From Stenotrophomonas raiganjensis (SeqCode) (GTDB taxonomy: Bacteria; Pseudomonadota; Gammaproteobacteria; Xanthomonadales; Xanthomonadaceae), in NCBI RefSeq assembly GCF_030658505.1, contig NZ_JAUTXR010000183.1:13696-77695 (forward strand): 64,000 bases of DNA, read 5' to 3'. The notes beneath the pieces were generated by a model. That model saw only the letters and a list, made by a program, of their open reading frames with translations, searched no databases and was not told where the DNA came from. Positions 6,313-54,154 of this stretch are shown in pieces. The first letter of the stretch is position 1, and the number at the start of each line of letters is the position of its first letter. The position numbers were made by a program, and so were the translations under genes.

Positions 6313-7083
6313 TCACTTCGGAGCGAGGCGGGTGGCGCCGTCCAGGCGGATGGTCTCGCCGTTGAGGTAGGTGTTGCCGAGGATGAAGCCGACCAGGCTG
6401 GCGAAGTCTTCCGGCTTGCCCAGGCGCGACGGGAACGGGATCGAGGCGGCCAGCGACTGCTGCACGGCTTCAGGCATGCCGTCGACCATCGGGGTCCAGA
6501 ACACGCCCGGAGCGATGGTGTTGACGCGGATGCCGAAGCGCGACAGTTCGCGCGCCATCGGCAGCGTCATCGAGACCACGCCGCCCTTGCTGGCGGCATA
6601 GGCGGCCTGGCCGATCTGGCCTTCATAGGCAGCGATGCTGGCGGTGTTGATGATGACGCCGCGCTCGCCGTCGGTGCCGGCGTCGTTGTGCTGCATGCGG
6701 TTGGCCGCAGCCTTGGCGACGTTGAAGCTGCCGACCAGGTTGACCATCACCGTGCCCTGGAAACCGGCCAGCGGCATCGGGCCCTCTTTGCCCAGCACGC
6801 GGCCGGCGCCGAGGATGCCGGCGCAGTTCATCGCCACGTTCAGGCCGCCGAGGAAATCGTGGGCCTGGTCGATGGCGGCTGCGACAGCGGCCTCGTCGCT
6901 GACGTTGACGTTGAAATAGCGGGCCTTGTCGGCACCCAGATCGGCAACGGCGGCGGCGCCCTTGTCGTCGTTGAGGTCGAACAGGGCCACCTTGCCGCCC
7001 TGGGCGACGAGGTGCTGGGCCACGGCCAGTCCGAGGCCGGAGACGCCGCCAGTGATCACGGCACGTACGGAAGACAGCTGCAT
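6313..7083 (-). CDS. SDR-family 3-hydroxyacyl-CoA dehydrogenase (HSD10-like)
   Basis: The start MQLSSVRAVITGG at 7083 gives 256 residues. The frame stays open further upstream, but that stretch lies over the next gene. Seen: nucleotide motif TGGVSGLGLAVA, NCAG motif, catalytic Ser/Tyr/Lys (NTASIAAY, YAASKGG) and IAPGVFWTPM. The overall pattern fits type II 3-hydroxyacyl-CoA dehydrogenases, which oxidise 3-hydroxyacyl-CoA or 2-methyl-3-hydroxybutyryl-CoA in fatty-acid and branched-chain amino-acid breakdown. The neighbouring HMG-CoA lyase and enoyl-CoA hydratase support that role. Confidence 0.88.
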   Translation of the reverse strand: MQLSSVRAVITGGVSGLGLAVAQHLVAQGGKVALFDLNDDKGAAAVADLGADKARYFNVNVSDEAAVAAAIDQAHDFLGGLNVAMNCAGILGAGRVLGKEGPMPLAGFQGTVMVNLVGSFNVAKAAANRMQHNDAGTDGERGVIINTASIAAYEGQIGQAAYAASKGGVVSMTLPMARELSRFGIRVNTIAPGVFWTPMVDGMPEAVQQSLAASIPFPSRLGKPEDFASLVGFILGNTYLNGETIRLDGATRLAPK

Positions 7084-7184
7084 TGCACGATCCTGCAGGT
7101 TCTGAGAACCGCCGATTCTAACGGAAGCCGCGACCGTCGCCGTTGTGCACTGCGCCGCCGCTGCAGTGCGGCGCAGTGCGGCGA

Positions 7185-8081
7185 TCACCCGGCGGCGGCC
7201 AGCGCCTGCCCGGTGCGGCTGGCGGTGGCGCGGCCGAGCAGGCCGGCCAGCCAGCGCCCGGTCTCGGCCAGTGCCGGCAGGTCCACGCCGCTGTCCAGGC
7301 CCAGGCCCTGCAGCAGGTAGACCACATCCTCGCTGGCGACATTGCCGCTGGCACCCTTGGCATACGGGCAGCCACCGGCGCCGGACACGGCGCTGTCGAC
7401 CACGCGTACGCCTTCCTCCAGGCAGGTGGCGATGTTGGCGATGGCCTGGCCGTAGGTGTCGTGGAAGTGCACGGCCAATGCGTCCATCGGAATCTCGGCA
7501 GCGACCGCCTGCAGCATCGCCCGTGCCTTGCGCGGGGTGCCGACGCCGATGGTGTCGCCCAGCGAGATTTCGTAACAGCCCATCTGGTGCAGGGCGCGCG
7601 CCACCCGCACCACGTCGGCCAACGGCACCTCGCCCTGGTAGGGACACCCGAGCACGGTGGAGACGTAGCCGCGCACGCGCACGCCATCGGCGGCGGCGCG
7701 GCGCAGGATCGGCTCGAACCGGGCCAGCGATTCGTCGATGCCGGCATTGGTGTTGGTGCGGTTGAAGGCTTCGGACGCGGCGGTGAACACCGCCACTTCC
7801 TCCACGCCCACCGCACGGGCGCGGTCGTAGCCCTGTTCGTTCGGCACCAGTACCGGGTAGTGCACGCCCGGCCGGCGCTGGATGCCGGCATAGACCTCGG
7901 CGGCGTCGGCCAGTTGCGGGATCCACTTCGGGCTGACGAAACTGGTCGCCTCGATGCTGCGCAGGCCGGTGGCCGACAGGCGGTTGATCAGTTCGATCTT
8001 GTCGGTGGTGGACACCGACTGCTTTTCGTTCTGCAGGCCGTCACGCGGGCCGACCTCGACGATGCGGACGTAATCGCTCAT
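7185..8081 (-). CDS. mvaB: Hydroxymethylglutaryl-CoA lyase
   Basis: A 298-residue DRE-TIM metallolyase that cleaves HMG-CoA to acetyl-CoA and acetoacetate, the last step of leucine degradation. The N-terminal VEVGPRDGLQNE, the metal-binding HFHDTYG and the Cys-containing SGAGGCPYAKGASGN are diagnostic. It overlaps the VOC-protein gene upstream by 4 bp, indicating one transcript with the enoyl-CoA hydratase. liuE would be an equally good name. Confidence 0.95.
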   Translation of the reverse strand: MSDYVRIVEVGPRDGLQNEKQSVSTTDKIELINRLSATGLRSIEATSFVSPKWIPQLADAAEVYAGIQRRPGVHYPVLVPNEQGYDRARAVGVEEVAVFTAASEAFNRTNTNAGIDESLARFEPILRRAAADGVRVRGYVSTVLGCPYQGEVPLADVVRVARALHQMGCYEISLGDTIGVGTPRKARAMLQAVAAEIPMDALAVHFHDTYGQAIANIATCLEEGVRVVDSAVSGAGGCPYAKGASGNVASEDVVYLLQGLGLDSGVDLPALAETGRWLAGLLGRATASRTGQALAAAG

Positions 8082-13477: not shown

Positions 13478-14239
13478 TCAGTCCCGCACCAGCCCGCCGT
13501 CGACCACCAGATTCTGGCCGGTCACTGCGCGTGACCACGGACTCGCGAAGAACAGCGCGGCATCGGCGAATTCGGCCGGGGTGGTGACGCTGCGCAGCGG
13601 CGTGTTGGTGGCGATGTAGTCGAACACCGCGTCGGGTGTGGCGGCGCTGGCGTCGGTGGTACGCAGCAGGCCGCCGGACAGCATGTTCACGGTGATCCCG
13701 TGTGGGCCGAGGTCGCCGGCCAGGGTGCGGGTCAGCGACAGCAGCGCGGCCTTGGCCGCGGTGTAGTCGTGGTAGGGCACCACCGGATTCTGGAACAGGT
13801 TGGTGCCGATGTTGATGACGCGGCCGAAACGGCGCGCCTGCATGCCAGGCAGGGCGGCCTGCACGGTGTTCAGTGCGCCGCGCACGCTGCCCTCGAACTG
13901 CGCCTGGAAGGCTGGCCAGCCGATGTCGGCGGCGGTGTCGCGCGCATCGCCATTGAACGAGAACGTTGCCAGCGCGTTGTTGACCACGGTGGTGATGCCT
14001 TGGCCGAAGTGGGCCAGTGCCTGCTGCAGCATCGCATCGACCTGGCCGCGCTCGGTGACGTCGGCCGGCAGCGCGATCGCCTGTCCGCCCAGCTCGGCAG
14101 CCAGTGCACGTGCAGTGCTTTCGCTACGGTGGTAGTTGATGATGACGCGTGCGCCCTGCGCGGCGAAGGCGCGGGCGATGTGCTGGCCAAGTCCGCGCCC
14201 GGCACCGGTGACCAGCACCAGCTGTTCGCTGATCTGCAT
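13478..14239 (-). CDS. SDR-family oxidoreductase (FabG-like)
   Basis: The start MQISEQLVLVTGAGRGLG at 14239 gives 253 residues; the frame is open for another 1.2 kb upstream but overlaps dapB and carA. Seen: TGAGRGLGQHIA cofactor loop and YTAAKAALLSLT with the catalytic Tyr/Lys. The expected Ser is in a changed context (INIGTNLFQNPVVPYHDY), so the catalytic Ser may be replaced by Thr. Substrate unknown. First gene of a three-gene group with MerR and the quinone reductase. Confidence 0.87.
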   Translation of the reverse strand: MQISEQLVLVTGAGRGLGQHIARAFAAQGARVIINYHRSESTARALAAELGGQAIALPADVTERGQVDAMLQQALAHFGQGITTVVNNALATFSFNGDARDTAADIGWPAFQAQFEGSVRGALNTVQAALPGMQARRFGRVINIGTNLFQNPVVPYHDYTAAKAALLSLTRTLAGDLGPHGITVNMLSGGLLRTTDASAATPDAVFDYIATNTPLRSVTTPAEFADAALFFASPWSRAVTGQNLVVDGGLVRD

Positions 14240-14329
14240 GAGGGAGCTGCCATCCATTGCATGAAAGGGCATGCAGCGTAGCAGCGATGGCGCTTGCCGG
14301 AGCGGGCGTGCTGCCGCTAGCCTGCAGGC

Positions 14330-15058
14330 ATGAACCAGACTCCCCTGCGATTGCTCATTCACGGTGCCTCCGGGCGCATGGGCCAGGCCCTGCTGCGGCT
14401 GGCCTCCGAACACCCCGAAACCCTGCAGATCGTAGCCGCCGTGACCGGTCGCGCGCCGGCCCAGCGCGTAGTCGACGGCGTGCCGTTCTTCGGCGCCAGT
14501 GAATTGCCGGGTGCGCCGGTGTTCGATGTGGCGATCGACTTCAGCCTGCCCGAGGGCTTCGATCCGATGCTGGCGCTGTGCGTGGAGCGTGGCGCGGGCC
14601 TGGTCTCGGGCACCACCGGCATCTCCAGCACCCAGCGCCAGGCGCTGGACGCGGCGGCGGCGAAGATCCCACTGGTCTGGGCCTCGAACTTCAGCCTGGG
14701 CGTGGCGGTGCTGGACGAGCTGGTCGAGCGCGCGGCGCAGGCGCTGGCCGGTTGGGACTGCGACATCGTCGAATCGCACCATACCCAGAAGAAGGATGCG
14801 CCGTCGGGCACCGCGCTGACTCTGGGGGCCGCCGCGCAGCGGGGCGGGGCGGAGCCGCACTACGCCAGCCTGCGCGCTGGCGATATCGTCGGTGAACACC
14901 TGGTCCAGTTCACCGGGCTGGGCGAGCGCATCGAGCTGGTGCACCGGGCCACCAACCGCGACATCTTCGCCCGCGGCGCCCTGTTCGCCGCCCGCCAGCT
15001 GCAGGGGCGGGCCCCGGGCAGCTACCGGGTGCGGGATCTGCTGGACGGGCCGCGTTAA
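14330..15058 (+). CDS. dapB: 4-hydroxy-tetrahydrodipicolinate reductase
   Basis: A 242-residue enzyme of the lysine/diaminopimelate pathway that reduces HTPA to tetrahydrodipicolinate with NAD(P)H. Seen: N-terminal GASGRMGQALLRL nucleotide loop, SGTTGIS, and the substrate-binding SHHTQKKDAPSGTAL. Slightly shorter than E. coli DapB (273 aa), as often seen in this group. Stands upstream of carAB, separated by a REP pair. Confidence 0.95.
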   Translation: MNQTPLRLLIHGASGRMGQALLRLASEHPETLQIVAAVTGRAPAQRVVDGVPFFGASELPGAPVFDVAIDFSLPEGFDPMLALCVERGAGLVSGTTGISSTQRQALDAAAAKIPLVWASNFSLGVAVLDELVERAAQALAGWDCDIVESHHTQKKDAPSGTALTLGAAAQRGGAEPHYASLRAGDIVGEHLVQFTGLGERIELVHRATNRDIFARGALFAARQLQGRAPGSYRVRDLLDGPR

Positions 15059-15061
15059 CCG

Positions 15062-15120
15062 GTAGCGCCGGGCCGTGCCCGGCGTCGGTGTCGGTTCCGC
15101 CGGGCATGGCCCGGCGCTAC
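15062..15120. repeat. Inverted pair of SMAG-type REPs
   Basis: GTAGCGCCGGGC-GTGC-CCGGCG at the left and its mirror (CGCCGGGCATGGCCCGGCGCTAC) at the right, both GTAG ends facing outward. The pair sits between dapB and carA and can fold into a large cruciform. Confidence 0.8.
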
Positions 15121-15214
15121 CAGCGGGCGCCGCATACGCCGCCGGATTGAAATGAATGCGCAATCGCCTGTTCATGAACAGCGATAACTGCTGGCGCGAG
15201 CGCCCCGGCAGCGC

Positions 15215-15220
15215 TACAAT
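15215..15220 (+). promoter_or_regulatory. Possible -10 element upstream of carA
   Basis: TACAAT lies about 25-30 bp upstream of a terminator-like hairpin in the carA leader. No good -35 box was found at the expected spacing, so this is a weak call. Confidence 0.3.
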
Positions 15221-15244
15221 TCGCACTCGCCGAATCACGAAAGC

Positions 15245-15279
15245 CGGACCGGTCCCAGACCGTACGTCCGCGCTTTTTT
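15245..15279 (+). promoter_or_regulatory. Terminator-like hairpin in the carA leader (possible attenuator)
   Basis: CGGAC-CGGTC pairs with GACCG-(TAC)-GTCCG around a CCA loop, giving a roughly 10-bp stem. It is followed by CGC and six T residues. It ends about 70 bp before the carA start and after a possible -10 box, the layout expected of an intrinsic attenuator on the carAB message. Function is inferred from structure and position. Confidence 0.5.
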
Positions 15280-15347
15280 GCAACCGGATTTCCGTGAAGC
15301 GCAGGCGTGACTTCGGCAGCCCCCTCGGTAGCCAAAGTGAGATTCCC

Positions 15348-16475
15348 GTGACCCAAGCCGCAATCCTCGTCCTCGAAGACGGCACCGTATTCGAGGGCGA
15401 ATCCGTAGGCGCGCCCGGCCTGTCCGTCGGTGAGGTGGTGTTCAACACCGCCATGACCGGTTACCAGGAAGTGCTGACCGACCCGTCCTACGCCCGGCAG
15501 ATGGTCACGCTGACCTATCCGCATATCGGCAACACCGGCATGACCGACCAGGACAATGAAGCGTCCAAGGTGTGGTCGGCCGGCCTGATCGTGCGCGACG
15601 TTCCCCGCCGTCCCAGCAACTGGCGCAGCCAGGTGTCGCTGCAGGACTGGCTGATCCAGCGTGGCGTGGTCGCCATCGCCGGCATCGACACCCGCAAGCT
15701 GACCCGCATCCTGCGCGAGAAGGGCGCGCAGAACGGTGCGCTGATGGCCGGCGACATCGACGTGGAAAAGGCACTGGAAGCCGCCCGCAAGTTCCCGGGG
15801 CTGAAGGGCATGGATCTGGCCAAGGTCGTCACTACCGAGAAGACCTACACCTGGACCGAGGGCCAGCTGGACCTGGACGCCAATGCCTTCGTCAGCGTGC
15901 CGGCGAAGTTCAAGGTCGTGGCCTACGACTTCGGCGTGAAGACCAACATCCTGCGCATGCTGGCCGAGCGTGGTTGCGAAGTGACCGTGGTGCCGGCGCA
16001 GACCCCGGCCGCCGAAGTGCTGGCGCTGAAGCCGGACGGCGTGTTCCTGTCCAACGGTCCGGGTGACCCGGAGCCGTGCGACTACGCCATCGACGCGATC
16101 AAGACCTTCATCGATGTGAAGATCCCGACCTTCGGCATCTGCCTGGGCCACCAGCTGCTGGGCCTGGCTTCGGGCGCGCAGACCATGAAGATGGGCCACG
16201 GCCACCACGGTGCCAACCACCCGGTGCAGGACCTGGACAGCGGCCGGGTGATGATCACCTCGCAGAACCACGGTTTCGCGATCGATGAAGCGACCCTGCC
16301 GCCGACCCTGCGCGTGACCCACCGCTCGCTGTTCGACGGCACCAACCAGGGCGTGGCCCGCACCGACGTGCCGGCGTTCTCCTTCCAGGGCCACCCGGAA
16401 GCGTCGCCGGGCCCGACCGATGTCGGTCCGCTGTTCGACCGCTTCGTGGTGCTGATGGAGCAGGCCAAGGCGTGA
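15348..16475 (+). CDS. carA: Carbamoyl-phosphate synthase small (glutaminase) subunit
   Basis: The GTG at 15348 ([19 protein letters not shown]) is the family start and gives 375 residues; the frame extends upstream but without family similarity. The N-terminal domain is followed by a class I glutamine amidotransferase with the nucleophile Cys in [10 protein letters not shown] and the His/Glu in [11 protein letters not shown]. It supplies ammonia to CarB for arginine and pyrimidine synthesis. Confidence 0.96.
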
Positions 16476-42223: not shown

Positions 42224-43349
42224 ATGATCGAACTGAATCCTGTCCGCCAGCGCATCACCGATCTGACCGATCGCGTGCTGTCGCTTCGGGGGTATCTTTG
42301 ACTACGACGCCAAGAAAGAGCGTCTTGAAGAAGTAACGCGGGAGCTGGAAAGCCCCGACGTCTGGAACAACGCCGAGTACGCCCAGAACCTGGGCCGCGA
42401 ACGTTCCAGCCTGGAAAAGACCGTGGGCGGCATCGCCTCGGTGCTTGACGGCCTGGCCGATGCCACCGAGCTGCTGGAGCTGGCCGAATCCGAACAGGAC
42501 GAGGACACCGCGCTGGCCGTGGTCGCCGACCTGGACAAGCACCAGTCGCACGTCGAGAAGCTGGAGTTCCAGCGCATGTTCTCCGGCGAGATGGACAATG
42601 CTGCGGCGTTCGTCGACATCCAGGCCGGTGCCGGCGGCACCGAAGCCCAGGACTGGGCCGAGATCCTGCTGCGCATGTACCTGCGCTGGTGCGAATCGCG
42701 CGGCTGGAAGACCGAGCTGATGGAAGTCTCCGGTGGCGACGTCGCCGGCATCAAGTCGGCCACCCTGCGCGTGGAAGGCGATTACGCCTATGGCTGGCTG
42801 AAGACCGAGACCGGCGTGCACCGCCTGGTACGCAAGTCGCCGTTCGACTCGGACAACCGCCGCCACACCAGCTTCACCTCGGTGTTCGTGTCGCCGGAAA
42901 TCGATGACAACATCGACATCACCATCAACCCGGCCGACCTGCGTACCGACGTGTACCGTTCGTCCGGTGCCGGTGGCCAGCACGTGAACAAGACCGAGTC
43001 GGCGGTGCGTATCACGCACATCCCGACCAACATCGTCGTGGCCTGCCAGACCGGCCGCAGCCAGCACCAGAACCGCGACAACGCGATGAAGATGCTGGCC
43101 GCCAAGCTGTACGAGCTGGAGATCCAGAAGCGCAACGCCGAAAAGGACGCCGTGGAAGCCACCAAGTCCGACATCGGCTGGGGCAGCCAGATCCGCAACT
43201 ACGTGCTCGACCAGAGCCGTATCAAGGACCTGCGTACCGGCATTGAACGTTCGGACACCCAGAAGGTGCTCGACGGCGACCTGGACGAGTTCGTCGAGGC
43301 CAGCCTGAAGGCCGGCCTGGCCGTGGGCTCCAAGCGCGCTGATGCCTGA
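42224..43349 (+). CDS. prfB: Peptide chain release factor 2 (programmed +1 frameshift)
   Basis: Translation begins at 42224 and reads 25 codons to CTT-TGA (42296-42301). A +1 shift on CTT skips the T at 42299 and continues with GAC, giving 374 residues. The slippery context CGGGGGTATCTTTGAC, with an internal Shine-Dalgarno-like GGGGG, is the classical prfB autoregulatory site: low RF2 slows reading of the in-frame UGA and favours the shift. Stop-codon motif SPF (RKSPFDSDN) and the catalytic GGQ ([13 protein letters not shown]) are present. Confidence 0.96.
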
Positions 43350-43415
43350 TCGACGCACCTGCGCGGATGTCGTCACCCTCGTGCGCAACGCCGAGGGTGG
43401 CTGATCACGCTTCCG

Positions 43416-43484
43416 GTAGAGCCGAGCCCATGCTCGGCTGCTGTTGGCGCAGTAGCAGATGCGTCGAGCATGGCTCGACGCTAC
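43416..43484. repeat. Inverted SMAG REP pair
   Basis: GTAGAGCCGAGCCCATGCTCGGCTG on the left and GCGTCGAGCATGGCTCGACGCTAC on the right, with GTAG ends outward. The two stems are of different sequence. Lies between prfB and the MmyB-like regulator and overlaps the longest open frame of the latter, which argues for the internal start. Confidence 0.8.
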
Positions 43485-43503
43485 AACGGGTACGGCGGTA
43501 GCG

Positions 43504-44286
43504 ATGATGCGCAGCGAAAGTGAACGCAAGGAACTCGGCGGCTTCCTCAAGGCCTGCCGCGCCCGTGTCGATCCCGCCACGCTCGGCCTGCCGGTCGGGC
43601 GCCGGCGTACTCCGGGCCTGAAGCGGGAGGAAGTGGCGCTGGCGATCGGGGTCAGTGTCAGCTGGTACACCTGGATCGAGCAGGGCCGCGAAGTGCGTGC
43701 CTCGCCCGAGGTGCTGGAGCGCCTGGCGCAGGTGCTGCGCCTGAGCGACGACGAGCGCGCCTATGCGTTCGCACTGTCCGGCTACGGTGTGCCGCTGGAG
43801 TCGCCGGACGAGAGTGTCACCGACGGCCTGCGCCAGCTGGTGGAGGCGATGCAGCCGATCCCCGCCTACGTGCGCAACACCCGTTTCGACATCCTGGCCT
43901 GGAACCCGGCCATCGCCGATCTGTTCGTGGACTACAGCCAGCTGGCGCCGCATGAGCGCAACACGCTGCGGCTGATGTTCCTGTACCCGCCGTACCGCAC
44001 GCTGATCCTCAACTGGGAGGAGATGACGCGCGGGTTGCTGGCCGGGTTCCGCGCGGCGATGGCGCAGGCGCCGGACAAGGCGCCGTTCCTGGCGTTGGTG
44101 GAGGACATCGCCGCGCACAGCGAGGAGTTCCGCCAGTGGTGGCCGGAGCACGACGTGCGCCGGTTCGACGAAGGTGCGAAGAAGCTGAACCATCCCACGC
44201 GCGGGTTGCTGGACCTGCAGTACGTGGCGCTGGTGCCGGAGAGCCGGCACGATCTTTCCCTGGTGACCTACCTGCCGCGTAGGTAG
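43504..44286 (+). CDS. XRE-family regulator with MmyB-like ligand-binding domain
   Basis: The start at 43504 (MMRSESERKELGGFLKACRARV) gives 260 residues; upstream codons fall in a REP. The helix-turn-helix (RTPGLKREEVALAIGVSVSWYTWIEQGREVRASPEVLERLAQVL) is followed by a MmyB-type domain (YVRNTRFDILAWNPAIADLF, WWPEHDVRRFDEGAKKLNHPTRGLLDLQY), thought to bind fatty-acid-like ligands. Such regulators usually control an adjacent oxidoreductase; the semialdehyde dehydrogenase downstream is a possible target. Confidence 0.9.
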   Translation: MMRSESERKELGGFLKACRARVDPATLGLPVGRRRTPGLKREEVALAIGVSVSWYTWIEQGREVRASPEVLERLAQVLRLSDDERAYAFALSGYGVPLESPDESVTDGLRQLVEAMQPIPAYVRNTRFDILAWNPAIADLFVDYSQLAPHERNTLRLMFLYPPYRTLILNWEEMTRGLLAGFRAAMAQAPDKAPFLALVEDIAAHSEEFRQWWPEHDVRRFDEGAKKLNHPTRGLLDLQYVALVPESRHDLSLVTYLPRR

Positions 44287-44779
44287 AGGGTTGTTCGGCA
44301 GGGCTGCGCCCTGCACCTGCTCAATGCAACAGCAACGGCCAAAGCCAAGGCGGGATTCCGTCGGTTGGCGGGGCGGTGTCGGAGCGCGGGGACGCCGCAA
44401 GTACGTCCCTGTAGGCTTGGCAGCCGCATCCATGCGGCTGACAGACACCCCGCACTCCGACACCGCCCCACCTTGGACAGCTTCCGCGCGGCTGTTGGTA
44501 GGTGTCGACCTTGGTCGACACATCTGTCAGATATCGATATACGAGAATGGGGTCAGATCCGTTCCAACAGATCGCAGGAAACCCGCTTCTGCTGTTGAAG
44601 TTGCCGGCCAGCGGCCGGCACTACAGCGGGTGCAGGGCGCAGCCCTGCCGATAACCCCATTCAGGCAGGTAAGTGCAGGTCACAGGATAAGCAGACGCCT
44701 TGTTGCCTCCGCCAATCGGGTCCACATTCCTGTGCAGGAGACGGGCCGCCGCCCGTTGTCGAGACACCAGGAGACCTGC
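44287..44779. repeat. 493-bp gap filled with several REP-like palindromes
   Basis: No gene seen. It contains GGCAGGGCTGCGCCCTGC (about 44299-44317), a stem around GGCAGCCGCATCCATGCGGCTG (about 44418-44440), GGTGTCGACCTTGGTCGACA (44501-44520), GTTGCCGGCCAGCGGCCGGC ending CTAC (44600-44623), and a mirror of the first unit (GCAGGGCGCAGCCCTGC, 44632-44648). At least three stem families are mixed, with the first and last units inverted to each other. The sadA-type gene starts 130 bp further on. Confidence 0.7.
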
Positions 44780-49560: not shown

Positions 49561-49849
49561 GTCGCTTTCCTGACTCCCGATTGTGCGCGCCGTCGCGAAA
49601 TGAGACGGCGCGATTGACGCCTCCCGCACTCGGCGTATCGTTAATGCACTACCTTGACGCCTGTTGTGGCTTGATCGGCGGCAGGGGGATGATGCATCGT
49701 GGAGAGTCCGCTTCACAATGCGACGACGATCATGAACCGGGACGAATGACACGGGAGCCAGGCCGATGCAGGGTGCGAGCGTTCGCAGCGGCAGAGTATC
49801 CTCGCCTGCTGATGATCCAGCATGGTCGAGAAACCAGGCAGAGTACGCG

Positions 49850-50928
49850 TTGAACATCGTCATTGTTGACGACCAGACGTCCGCCCGGACGATGCTGCGC
49901 CACGTCATCGAGGATATCGCGCCGGAACTGAGCGTGTATGACTTCGGTGACCCGCTGACCGCATTGGCCTGGTGCGAGGCGCATCCGGTCGACCTGCTGC
50001 TGCTCGATTACCGCATGCCGGAGATGGACGGGCTGGAGTTCGCCCGTCGCTTCCGCCGTCTGCCCAAGCACCGCGATATCCCCGTGATCCTGATCACCGT
50101 GGTTGGCGACGAGCCGATCCGGCAGGCCGCGCTGGAAGCGGGTGTCATCGATTTCCTGGTCAAGCCGATCCGCCCGCGCGAGCTGCGCGCACGCTGTTAC
50201 AACCTGCTGCAGCTGCGCCAGCAGACCGAGAATGTGAAGCAGCGTGCGCTGTCGCTGGAGCAGCGCCTGCTGGCCAGCATGCACGAGGTGGAGGAGCGCG
50301 AACGCGAAACCCTGTCGCGATTGGCTCGGGCCATCGAGTTCCGTGATGCCGGCACCAGTGCCTATCCGGCACCAGTGCCTATCTGGAGCGCATGGCGCGC
50401 GTTGCGGGATTGATCGCCGAGCAGCTTGGCCTGCCCGAGGATGACGTCAGGCTGATCGAGATGGCCGCGCCGTTGCACGACATGGGCAAGATCGCCATCC
50501 CCGATGCGGTGCTGCTCAAGCAGGGCAAGCTCAACGAGGAGGAGCTGGCGATCATGCGCCGGCATCCGCGTATCGGCCATGAGCTGCTCAGTGGCAGCCA
50601 GAACCGCTTCATCCAGGTGGGTGCATTGATCGCGCTGCGCCATCATGAGCGTTACGACGGCAGCGGCTACCCCGATGGATTGGTCGGCGATGCGATCCCG
50701 CTGGAAGCGCGCATCGTCGCCGTCGCCGATGTGTTCGATGCCCTGATCTCGCCGCGCCCCTACAAGGAAGCATGGACGATGGAGGCCACCCTGGCCTATC
50801 TCTATGCCCAGCGCGGCCGGCTGTTCGACCCGCGTTGCGTGGACGCGCTGATGCGCGGCCGTGAGCAGCTGGACCAGATCTGCGCCGAGCATTCGATGGC
50901 CTCCGCGCGCCCGGGGCTGGGCGCGTGA
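49850..50928 (+). pseudogene. rpfG: rpfG response regulator (CheY receiver + HD-GYP), frameshifted by a 17-bp tandem duplication
   Basis: The receiver domain (MNIVIVDDQTSARTML from TTG 49850; phospho-Asp in LLLLDYRMPEMDG) is in one frame. The HD-GYP domain (PLHDMGKIAIPD, RHHERYDGSGYPDGL) is in another. The break is a perfect tandem repeat of CCGGCACCAGTGCCTAT at 50349-50365 and 50366-50382. Upstream reading ends at 50413 (187 aa, no HD-GYP core). Deleting 17 bp gives 354 codons ending at 50928, with GTSAYLERMARVAG across the joint as in RpfG. In Xanthomonas, RpfG degrades c-di-GMP when RpfC is activated by DSF. A free HD-GYP fragment might start at ATG 50392 (GGAG 3 nt upstream). Confidence 0.92.
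50349..50382. repeat. Perfect 2 x 17-bp tandem duplication in rpfG
   Basis: CCGGCACCAGTGCCTAT occurs twice back to back. Since 17 is not a multiple of 3, it shifts the frame. It is not a homopolymer, so a base-calling error is unlikely. Replication slippage could create and remove it. Confidence 0.95.
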
Positions 50929-53102
50929 AACGCCTGTGGTCGCAGCTGCGGCTGCGCCTGGCCCAACGCCAGGACAGTGAACACGGTCAGCAGATCGTCC
51001 GCATTGTCCTGATCAGCCTGATCCTGGCCTACGTATTGTTGCCGGCACCGCGCCACGACCTGCCACATGAGCAGTACGCGGGCGTGCTGGCGATCGTGCT
51101 GACCGGCCTGAGCCTGTCGCTGATGCTGTTCGGCTGGCTGCTGTGGCGACCGGCCCGTTCCGACCCGCGTCGCGTACTGGGCATGCTGGCCGACTACGGG
51201 CTGATCGCCGCCGGCATGGTGCAGATGGGCGAGCCGCTGGCCTGGGTCTACATCGTGGTGATGTGGGTGACGGTCGGCAACGGCATGCGCTTCGGCAATC
51301 ACTACCTGTATGTAGCGGTGGCGATGGCGATGGTCAGCTTCGGCTGTACGGTGCTGCTGACCCCGTACTGGGAGCAGAACTTCCGCCTGGCGATCGGCCT
51401 CTGGCTCGGTTTGGCAGCCGTGCCCCTGTACTTCTCGACACTGCTTCGGCAGTTGACCGAGGCGATGGCCGAAGCGCGTCGTGCCAGCGAGGCCAAGAGC
51501 CGCTTCCTGGCCAACATGAGCCACGAGTTCCGCACACCGTTGAATGGACTCAATGGCATGACCGAAGTGCTGGCGACCACGCGCCTGGACGAGGAACAGC
51601 GCGAGTGCCTCAACACCATCCAGGCGTCGTCGCGCAGCCTGCTGGCGCTGGTGGAGGAGGTGCTGGACATCTCTGCCATCGAGGCCGGCAAGCTGCGCGT
51701 GGTCGCGGAAGACTTCGCGCTGTCCGACGTGATCCAGGCGATCGGGCTGATCCTGCTGCCGCAGGCGAAGGCCAAGCGCCTGGACTACCGGGTGAAGGTT
51801 GCCGATGGCGTGCCACCGCAGCTGCGTGGTGATGTGGGCCACCTGCGGCAGATCCTGCTGAACCTGGCCGGCAATGCAGTCAAGTTCACCGACAACGGCC
51901 GGGTCGAGATCCGTGTCGGCGTGGTGCATGCCGACACCAGCGGCGCGGTGCGGCTGCGCTTCGACATCCTCGACACCGGCATCGGCGTGGCGCCGGCGAT
52001 GCGTATGCGTCTGTTCGATGCATTCGAGCAGGCCGACGTCAGCATGGCACGCCGCCACGAAGGCACCGGCCTGGGCACGACCATCGCCAAGGGCCTGGTC
52101 GAAGCAATGGACGGTGACATCGGCTACCTGGAGAATCCGCCACGCGGCAGCCACTTCTGGGTCGAACTGCCGTTCGCGCCGCCACAGCCGCGGGTCCCGG
52201 GCGCTGTGCCGAGCCTGGCCGGCGATGAGGAGGTGGGGACGGGAGGCAACGTGATCGCCTTCGCCGATCCGTTCCTGCGCCACCGGGCACGCGTGCGCAG
52301 CATGCAGATCCTGGTGGCCGACGACCACGAGGCCAATCGCATGGTCCTGCAGCGGCTGCTGCAGAAGGCCGGGCATCGGGTGTTGTGCGTGGACGGCGGC
52401 GAAGCGGTACTGGACGCGCTGGCTGACAGCGAGTTCGATGCGGTCATCGTTGATCTGCACATGCCGGGCATGAGCGGCCTGGACATGCTGAAGGAACTGC
52501 GGGTGATGCAGGCTGGCGGTGGCCCACGCACGCCGGTGCTGGTCCTCAGCGCCGACGTCACGCCGGAGGCGATCCAGCGGTGCACGCAGGCGGGCGCGCA
52601 TGCCTTCCTGGCCAAGCCGGTGGTGGCGGTACGCCTGCTCGATACCCTTGCCGAGATTGCCAGCAACGCCCAGCTGAAGACGGTGGCCGCGCCGGTCATG
52701 CGCTCGGGCGCGCTCCTGCCGGATGGCGTGCTCGACAGCAGCGTGCTGGACGAGCTGGCTTCGCTGGGGATGGGCGACGGATTCGAGCGCGAGTTCATCC
52801 GCCAGTGCCTGGAGGACGCCGCGACCTGCATGGGCAGTGCCGGGCAGGCGGGCGAGGCCGCGCAATGGGACGTATTCCGCGAACAGGCGCACGCGATCAA
52901 GGGCGTAGCCAGCAACCTCGGGCTGATGCGCGCGGCCAACCGCGCCGGCGAGCTGATGCGGATGGCGGACTGGCAGCTGAAGGCTGAATGGCGTTCGCGC
53001 CTGGGCACTCTGCAGGAAGCGATCAAGGAGGGGCGGCGTGCGCTGGAGGCGCGGGCGGAGCGCCGCGCGCGCGGCACGGCCGATGACGGTGAAGCACGCT
53101 GA
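50925..53102 (+). CDS. rpfC: Hybrid sensor histidine kinase RpfC (DSF sensor)
   Basis: A GTG start overlapping the rpfG stop by 4 bp gives 725 residues, close to Xanthomonas RpfC (726). About five membrane helices in residues 23-172, HisKA with phospho-His at residue 200 ([16 protein letters not shown]), HATPase ([34 protein letters not shown]), receiver ([26 protein letters not shown]) and C-terminal HPt ([16 protein letters not shown]). It senses DSF, phosphorylates RpfG, and at low DSF sequesters RpfF through its receiver. The single five-helix sensor fits the short RpfC variant rather than the ten-helix one described in some S. maltophilia. Confidence 0.95.
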
Positions 53103-53121
53103 TCCATGCCATTGGCACCCT

Positions 53122-53149
53122 AAAAAAAGCCCGGTGGCCAACCGGGCTT
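53122..53149 (-). terminator. Intrinsic terminator after rpfF
   Basis: AAGCCCGGT / ACCGGGCTT stem (53127-53149), with a run of A on the plus strand that gives a U-tract for minus-strand transcripts. It ends rpfF transcription 25 bp past the stop and separates it from the convergent rpfC. Confidence 0.85.
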
Positions 53150-53174
53150 GAACCCTTCTGGGGGAGGGGAGGAA

Positions 53175-54047
53175 TCAGGCCGCGTCGATGCTTGCGCGAC
53201 GGGTCTGGGCCTTGATCAGGCGATCCATGGTGCGCAGCGAGCGATCGCCAAGGGCGAGGGCGGAATCAACCCACACCTTGGTGATCTCCAGCAGTTCGTC
53301 GTAGCTGACGGCCTGGGCGATGCCGCGTGCGGCGTTCATGGCCAGGTAGGACTGTGGGATCCGCTGCTGCTGGCGGATCAGGTCTTCGACCGCAGCGCGG
53401 CCTTCGCCCTTCTTCACCAGCACGTCAACCACGCCCATCGCATGCATTTCCTCGGCACTGTAGACCCGGCCATCGAGGATGATCTTCTCGGCCAGGTGCG
53501 GCGACACCCGGCGGCACAGGAACGAATAGGCGCCCATGCCCGGGAACAGGCCGAACAGCACCTCGGGCAGGCCCAGGCCGCTGCCTTCCTCGGCGACGAT
53601 GGTGTGGCAGGCCAGTGCCATTTCCAGGCCACCGCCGAGGGCGTCCCCCTGGATCAGGGCGATCGAGCGGACGTCGCCGCCGAACCCGGTATGCAGGTGG
53701 TGCACGCCTTCCACGCAGCGCTGGGCGTAGGTCAGCAACAGGTCGCGGTTGCCTTCGCGGATGAGGCGGGTGAACAGATCCAGGTCACCGCCCAGGTTGT
53801 AGGCGACGGCATCGGACGCCAGCACGAAGTGCCGCAGCTTGCCGCTGTGGCGCTCGGCGGGGCTCTGGGTGATGGCGGCCATGTAGCTCCACATCTCGTC
53901 GAGCATGTCCTTGCGGCAGCAGGGGCGGACGCCGGTGGCGGCATCGGCGTGCATGAACAGCCAGTGGGCAGCGCCGTCGGCGCTGTCTTCGGTACGGATG
54001 GTGGCGAAACGCGAGCCGCTGGAAGGCAGCTTTTCAATGGTGCTCAT
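53175..54047 (-). CDS. rpfF: DSF synthase RpfF (crotonase fold)
   Basis: The start MSTIEKLPSSGSRFATIR at 54047 gives 290 residues, against 289 in Xanthomonas. Crotonase fold with the two catalytic glutamates conserved: Glu142 in GDALGGGLEMALAC and Glu162 in GLGLPEVLFGLFPGMGAYS (Glu141/161 in X. campestris). It dehydrates 3-hydroxyacyl-ACP and releases cis-2-unsaturated fatty acids (DSF). Preceded by rpfB on the same strand, with a strong hairpin between them. Confidence 0.95.
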   Translation of the reverse strand: MSTIEKLPSSGSRFATIRTEDSADGAAHWLFMHADAATGVRPCCRKDMLDEMWSYMAAITQSPAERHSGKLRHFVLASDAVAYNLGGDLDLFTRLIREGNRDLLLTYAQRCVEGVHHLHTGFGGDVRSIALIQGDALGGGLEMALACHTIVAEEGSGLGLPEVLFGLFPGMGAYSFLCRRVSPHLAEKIILDGRVYSAEEMHAMGVVDVLVKKGEGRAAVEDLIRQQQRIPQSYLAMNAARGIAQAVSYDELLEITKVWVDSALALGDRSLRTMDRLIKAQTRRASIDAA

Positions 54048-54154
54048 GTAAGGGTCCTCGGCATGCGGCCCGCAGAGTGAAGTGGGTGGCCGGCGGGCCG
54101 AACGGTCCACACACGCGGCGATGCTACACCGCCCCTGTGGCGGCGTATGCGAAA

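What the first reader, a model, noticed from the sequence alone, without database searches (positions are those of the whole stretch)
49850..50928. rpfG, the c-di-GMP output of DSF sensing, is knocked out by a 17-bp tandem duplication
CCGGCACCAGTGCCTAT is present twice at 50349-50382. Removing one copy gives exactly 354 codons from TTG 49850 to the stop shared with rpfC, and rebuilds the conserved RDAGTSAYLERM junction. All other rpf genes look intact, so the strain would make and sense DSF without the usual HD-GYP response. Expected effect, from Xanthomonas work: higher c-di-GMP, more biofilm, lower motility and exoenzymes. A two-copy short repeat can be gained and lost by slippage, so this may be an on/off switch or a recent adaptive or laboratory mutation.
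Basis: partly seen in the sequence, partly recalled or inferred. Interest (0 to 1): 0.9.

Follow-up and report, generated by a model that had tools for sequence, protein, structure and literature searches.

The report
Quorum-response gene rpfG broken by duplication
In this Stenotrophomonas strain a 17-base stretch of the gene for the quorum-sensing response protein RpfG stands twice in a row, which shifts the reading frame and almost certainly disables the protein; it looks like a recent one-off mutation, but other broken versions of the same gene turn up in related strains, which may be the more interesting fact.

Summary
CCGGCACCAGTGCCTAT stands twice, head to tail, at 50349-50382 and splits rpfG into a receiver ORF (ATG 49766 to TGA 50413) and an HD-GYP ORF (50392-50928). 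The 80 best related loci and 78 of 78 other Stenotrophomonas genomes with a full-length match have one copy. The strain belongs to the S. maltophilia complex. The break looks recent: identical copies, and 54 silent against 3 replacing codon differences from D457 behind it. Best reading: spontaneous tandem duplication, loss of function. Reversal is plausible but untested. New here: seven other RpfG fragments with wrong-frame tails from S. maltophilia-like sources, against one for neighbouring lysS by the same rule. This hints at recurrent loss of rpfG, and is worth more than the single allele.

The parts
50349..50365 (+). first copy of the 17-bp unit (codons 195-200, ATG 49766 numbering)
50366..50382 (+). 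second, identical copy; shifts the frame
   Evidence: absent in 80 of 80 loci and 78 of 78 genomes with a long match
50351..50362 (+). GGCACCAGTGCC, interrupted palindrome inside the unit (again at 50368-50379)
   Evidence: weak single-strand DNA hairpin of the unit, -2.7 kcal/mol, 8 of 200 shuffles as good
49766..50413 (+).
   Evidence: Response_reg PF00072 E 2.3e-26; 200 of 200 residues identical to D457
50392..50928 (+). 3' ORF (ATG, 178 aa): HD-GYP domain without its start; holds HD (LHDMGK) and HHExxDGxGYP motifs
   Evidence: HD_5 PF13487 from profile position 23 on, E 3.9e-38
50347..50413 (+). stretch in which both frames are open (67 bases with the 5' frame's stop); no homopolymer longer than 3
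50925..53102 (+). rpfC, hybrid kinase of the short (rpf-2-like) type; GTG overlaps the rpfG stop
   Evidence: HisKA, HATPase_c, REC, Hpt; short N-part
53175..54050 (-). rpfF, DSF synthase (start at MSTIEK assigned here)
   Evidence: ECH_1 PF00378
54209..56005 (-). rpfB-like acyl-CoA ligase (start not refined)
   Evidence: AMP-binding PF00501

Best explanation
This is a recent, spontaneous loss-of-function allele of rpfG in one S. maltophilia-complex strain. During replication a 17-base stretch with an internal palindrome was copied twice, most simply by strand slippage (inferred). The ribosome leaves the frame after residue 200 and stops 15 residues later (shown by sequence). The products are a receiver domain without output and, at best, a poorly expressed HD-GYP piece lacking its first helix (inferred). 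RpfG output is therefore lost, and rpfC, whose start overlaps the rpfG stop, may be translated less (inferred). Loss of one copy could restore the gene (plausible by precedent, not tested). Other rpfG frameshifts in related strains suggest that losing RpfG is tolerated, and perhaps favoured, in some settings (lead, not proven).
For: Exact repeat, unique in genome; longest in window and beyond 20 random sequences. Single copy and open frame in 80 of 80 loci (the best 80 of 580 kept). Of 90 other Stenotrophomonas genomes, 78 have a full-length RpfG match and 12 none at 1e-80; the same 78 are 17 bases short of the window at this site. Recent: copies identical; codon differences behind the break (residues 204-381) are 50-55 silent and 3 replacing against L003, L004 and L005, and 47 silent and 10 replacing against L006. 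Control for bad sequence: of 218 relative ORFs with a hit in the window, six rows were frame-split, and rpfG (two of the six, one per relative) is the only one judged a real gene in two frames. Recurrent loss: among 120 listed RpfG fragments, seven run in the right frame from residue 1 and then continue in a wrong frame, with breaks after residues 110, 113, 122, 142, 182, 228, 289; one in the lysS control.
Against: No reads, no second strain with this allele, no phenotype. The 3' ORF keeps the catalytic motifs and has a GGAG 3 bases upstream of its ATG, so some HD-GYP protein by re-initiation is possible. RpfG is in one piece in the other 78 species genomes with a match, so loss is not common at species level. 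The lysS control is one essential gene and its query was less sensitive (its first 61 residues lie outside the gene).
Confidence: 0.8

Rival explanations
1. Phase-variable switch: the two-copy repeat is gained and lost often enough that the population is a mix of RpfG-on and RpfG-off cells.
For: Perfect short direct repeat with an internal palindrome; two copies could pair in a 12-bp hairpin on the minus strand. Precedents: E. coli K-12 phnE 8-bp insertion lost by slippage (PMC6469041 passages); pneumococcal capsule duplications (Waite 2001, 2003: titles in the reference list and one sentence of PMC4022640).
Against: Only two copies; no relative examined has two or three. The hairpin is not exceptional (z -0.9 on the plus and -1.5 on the minus strand). 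In Xenorhabdus, lrp mutations including tandem duplications of 26-116 bp were judged not to be phase variation (PMC6786866 passages), but the isolates tested there for reversion were, by the legend, point, frameshift and transposon mutants, so this says little about duplications.
Confidence: 0.1
2. Sequencing or assembly artefact.
For: 192-contig draft; no reads at hand.
Against: An exact 17-bp duplication is not a usual base-calling error (general knowledge); no other gene in the window was judged frame-split against two relatives.
Confidence: 0.07
3. Split but working gene: the receiver domain and a re-initiated HD-GYP protein both function, freeing the phosphodiesterase from RpfC control.
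For: 3' ORF of 178 aa with HD and GYP motifs, ATG inside the end of the 5' ORF, weak Shine-Dalgarno-like GGAG; its codons are still conserved.
Against: The HD_5 match starts at profile position 23, and intact D457 RpfG aligns with the solved HD-GYP protein 4mcw some 30 residues further upstream than the piece does, so the start of the domain is missing. Conservation is explained by recency.
Confidence: 0.05
4. Programmed or adventitious frameshifting restores full-length RpfG.
For: Both frames are open for 67 bases.
Against: No homopolymer over 3 in the overlap; not shared by any relative examined.
Confidence: 0.02

Closest known systems
RpfG of the Xanthomonadaceae DSF system (REC + HD-GYP response regulator)
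   Same: Gene order, receiver and HD-GYP domains, overlap with rpfC; 200 of 200 and 175 of 178 residues identical to S. maltophilia D457 RpfG in the two parts.
   Different: Here broken by a frameshift after residue 200.
rpf-2 variant of the S. maltophilia rpf cluster (PMC4517397)
   Same: Short RpfC sensor part (180 residues before the core) and RpfF 51-52% identical to the long-RpfC strains L007-L009, L011 but 94-96% to L003-L006.
   Different: Assigned by RpfC length and RpfF similarity; M30, the reference rpf-2 strain, was not compared. Lengths for relatives are counted from the previous stop codon and so are upper bounds.
Reversible inactivation by a short insertion or duplication (E. coli K-12 phnE; pneumococcal cap3A, tts, cap8E)
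   Same: A short insertion inside an ORF shifts the frame and its loss restores it.
   Different: Reversal is not shown here.
rpfG 6-nt insertion in a colistin-evolved S. maltophilia clone (PMC7529437, DA62004)
   Same: Small insertion in rpfG about 14 codons upstream, in a repeated stretch.
   Different: In frame, and accompanied by two other mutations; its effect alone is unknown. That the parent is D457 is inferred here from the smd locus tags and the genome position; the passages seen do not name it.

Membership tests
rpfG (RpfG family) | Receiver domain fused to HD-GYP domain | tested here: not met
   Both domains encoded but in different frames; a broken member by descent
rpfG (RpfG family) | Location next to rpfC, rpfF, rpfB | tested here: met
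rpfG (RpfG family) | c-di-GMP phosphodiesterase activity and RpfC phosphotransfer | not testable with these tools
   needs biochemistry
rpf-2 cluster variant | Short RpfC with five transmembrane regions | tested here: inconclusive
   Short N-part of 180 residues, against 385-428 (upper bounds) in L007, L008, L009, L011; a crude hydropathy count gives four helices in that part, six in those four
rpf-2 cluster variant | No DSF made in pure culture | not testable with these tools
   bioassay needed; literature only
Phase-variable locus by repeat copy number | Copy-number variation among close strains or within a population | not tested
   no same-species strain or reads available; other species have one copy
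Phase-variable locus by repeat copy number | Exact repeat whose length is not a multiple of 3 inside an ORF | tested here: met

The most novel reading that the evidence does not exclude
RpfG is a recurrent, independently lost output node in the S. maltophilia complex, so strains that keep the DSF sensor but discard its c-di-GMP output arise again and again under selection, and short tandem duplications such as this one are a reversible route to that state.
Probability: 0.3. Interest if true: 0.6.

Novelty: new member of a known kind. Interest (0 to 1): 0.35.

Why it matters
A single frameshifted regulator in a draft genome is ordinary. If rpfG is lost repeatedly, as seven other broken alleles hint, DSF signalling in this opportunist would have an evolutionary weak point at its output rather than at signal synthesis, and strain-to-strain contradictions about DSF phenotypes could partly be explained by unnoticed rpfG alleles. 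It would also warn against predicting phenotype from an apparently complete rpf cluster.

Tried and rejected
Chance repeat: rejected. Shared two-copy form with programmed frameshifting: rejected, 80 of 80 loci and 78 of 78 genomes have one copy. Old decaying pseudogene: rejected. Other frameshifts in the window as a sign of bad sequence: one search flagged six rows. Two are rpfG against each relative. One (13481-16394) holds an intact short-chain dehydrogenase, and the first 728 residues of the relative's long ORF have no Pfam match. One lies antisense to lysS and the TPP-enzyme gene upstream of it. One (42963-44523) has no Pfam match and lies antisense to two intact ORFs. One (6688-7762) lies antisense to intact ORFs by the ORF lists (not Pfam-tested, having failed). 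Palindrome as a hot spot: weak; GGCACCAGTGCC is one of several codon choices among relatives and folds only modestly. The search with the 3' piece (2843 hits, 120 listed) was not evaluated for broken alleles. Literature for natural rpfG loss in S. maltophilia: in the rows listed (part of the papers found in each) and the papers opened, only the in-frame insertion was seen. Two lung-evolution papers have no word beginning with 'rpf' in their main text (PMC10308010; PMC5253648); supplements could not be read. PMC7283896 was seen as abstract and outline only. Structure prediction was not used. The database control is one essential gene (lysS): it speaks against sequencing error, not for selection relative to other dispensable genes, and no protein search was left for a second control.

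Full report
What is there. CCGGCACCAGTGCCTAT stands twice, head to tail, at 50349-50382. Tandem Repeats Finder gives it the top score of the window. It has no other exact match in the 4.7-Mb, 192-contig genome. It is the longest exact tandem repeat of period 10-60 in the window (next 12, 10, 10); in 20 Markov sequences of the same length (periods 10-40) the maximum was 11.

Gene anatomy. Upstream lies a receiver domain (PF00072, E 2.3e-26), downstream an HD-GYP domain (PF13487, E 3.9e-38, from profile position 23), then a hybrid kinase (HisKA, HATPase_c, REC, Hpt), and on the other strand a crotonase-family protein and an acyl-CoA ligase. This is the rpfG-rpfC / rpfF-rpfB cluster. The 3' frame is open from 50347, has its first start at ATG 50392 and ends at TGA 50928 inside the GTGA overlap with rpfC. 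ATG 49766 is the better start: MQGASVRS... is shared by the four close relatives examined, L003-L006, and by database proteins, and published residue numbers fit it.

Relatives. By record titles the strain belongs to the S. maltophilia complex; the 12-kb loci L003 to L005 are 92.0-92.4% identical to the window. The 80 loci (the best 80 of 580) all have one copy and one frame. Of 90 other Stenotrophomonas genomes, 78 have an RpfG match at 1e-80 or better and 12 have none. 77 of the 78 have no stop inside the match. In G023 one TGA lies inside; it is probably the gene's own end, because RpfG of its neighbours in the list matches only to residue 379 (not checked further). The DNA comparison shows the same 78 genomes 17 bases short of the window at this site. 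The exact single-copy unit was found in three fetched loci of relatives, L038, L087 and L089.

Age. The two copies are identical. Silent/replacing codon differences for residues 1-200 and 204-381 (the latter behind the frameshift) are 36/1 and 50/3 against L003, 48/1 and 55/3 against L004, 44/0 and 54/3 against L005 (D457), 44/6 and 47/10 against L006. There is no sign of decay, so the break is recent.

Is it an error? Reads were not available. As a control, ORFs of 150 aa or more from the matching regions of two relatives (G061, G041) were compared with the window: 218 had a hit of 70% identity or more (antisense ORFs included), six rows were split between frames, two of them rpfG itself (one per relative). 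The other four lie antisense to, or run past, intact genes (the 6688-7762 case was judged from ORF lists only). rpfG is the only gene I judge to be really split.

Recurrent loss. The 5' piece was searched against 5.8 billion proteins (411 hits, 120 listed). A rule was applied to all 120 listed proteins: at least 95% identity over at least 80 residues to one of six intact RpfG of S. maltophilia-like genomes. Eight pass. Seven of these run from residue 1 and continue in a wrong frame of the same DNA: P0109, P0097, P0078, P0053, P0003, P0001 and P0002, breaks after residues 110, 113, 122, 142, 182, 228 and 289. The eighth, P0050, matches only in its middle and was dropped; P0047, 94% identical, ends without a foreign tail and misses the rule. 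Sources are ncbi for P0053, ncbi and lgn for P0003, jgi for P0109 and lgn alone for the other four; clusters hold 1 to 43 member sequences, whose sameness was not checked. The window's own tail would have ranked first and is not there. The same rule on the 120 listed fragments of the lysS search (1310 hits), an essential neighbour, passes five: one with a wrong-frame tail (P0234), two with short adapter-like tails (P0232, P0242; adapter identity recalled), one continuing in frame as another LysS (P0233), and one with an unrelated tail (P0239). So 7 of 8 against 1 of 5. Limits: the first 61 of the 187 lysS query residues lie outside the gene, which makes that search less sensitive; lysS is one gene; whether rpfG is lost more often than other dispensable genes is untested. 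A colistin-evolved S. maltophilia clone carried a 6-nt in-frame rpfG insertion between residues 181 and 182, along with changes in sodB and an intergenic region (PMC7529437 passages; parent D457 inferred from locus tags and position).

What it does. Loss of the fused HD-GYP output is inferred. The genome keeps one other HD-GYP (PF13487), 13 EAL and 28 GGDEF matches, so a change in the global c-di-GMP level is not assured. The RpfC sensor part is short (180 residues before the core) and RpfF is 51-52% identical to that of long-RpfC strains L007-L009 and L011 but 94-96% to that of L003-L006. This is the rpf-2 picture, reported not to make detectable DSF except on sensing DSF (PMC4517397, abstract and passages). 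In S. maltophilia FF11, rpfC or rpfG deletion lowered biofilm by about 20% at 37 C and 13% at 15 or 25 C (PMC11049440 section 3.4); rpfG deletion lowered clp promoter activity by 58%, and RpfC/RpfG promote protease; the paper's discussion states the biofilm sign both ways. In contrast, an rpfF mutant of K279a aggregated, moved less and made less protease (PMC6086056 passages).

Remaining functions of the pieces. The 178-residue 3' ORF holds LHDMGK and HHERYDGSGYP but starts some 30 residues inside the HD-GYP region that intact RpfG aligns to the solved homologue 4mcw. Re-initiation is possible (GGAG, 3 bases, ATG) but a stable enzyme is doubtful. In Lysobacter RpfG is reported to bind WspR independently of its enzyme activity (PMC10333796 passage), so a piece might retain something; unknown.

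Reversibility. Short insertions in ORFs can be lost again: E. coli phnE (PMC6469041 passages) and pneumococcal capsule genes (Waite 2001 and 2003, known here only from the reference list and a sentence of PMC4022640). In Xenorhabdus, lrp mutations, some of them tandem duplications, were judged not to be phase variation, but the duplications themselves seem not to have been among the isolates tested for reversion (PMC6786866 passages). The internal palindrome folds modestly (-2.7 kcal/mol, 8 of 200 shuffles as good; two copies together z -0.9 on the plus and -1.5 on the minus strand). A switch is possible and unproven.

Verdict. The phenotype forecast is partly contradicted for this species and cluster type, and the switch idea is untested. 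The allele itself is ordinary; the set of other broken rpfG alleles is the lead to follow.

Noticed in passing
P0001, P0002, P0003, P0053, P0078, P0097, P0109: Seven differently frameshifted RpfG fragments from S. maltophilia-like sources; possible recurrent loss of rpfG.
   Followed up: partly
window 50925-54050: RpfC is of the short type and RpfF of the matching variant (rpf-2-like), so DSF production by the strain alone is doubtful.
   Followed up: partly
L017: A record titled Bacillus subtilis SK7B5 carries a Stenotrophomonas-like rpf region (91% identity to the RpfG piece); probably mislabelled or contaminated.
   Followed up: no
12 of 90 other Stenotrophomonas genomes have no RpfG match at 1e-80; the gene may be absent or very different there.
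   Followed up: no
PMC11049440 section 3.4 and discussion passages: The paper states both that RpfC/RpfG raise and that they lower biofilm; the results section says the mutants form less.
   Followed up: partly
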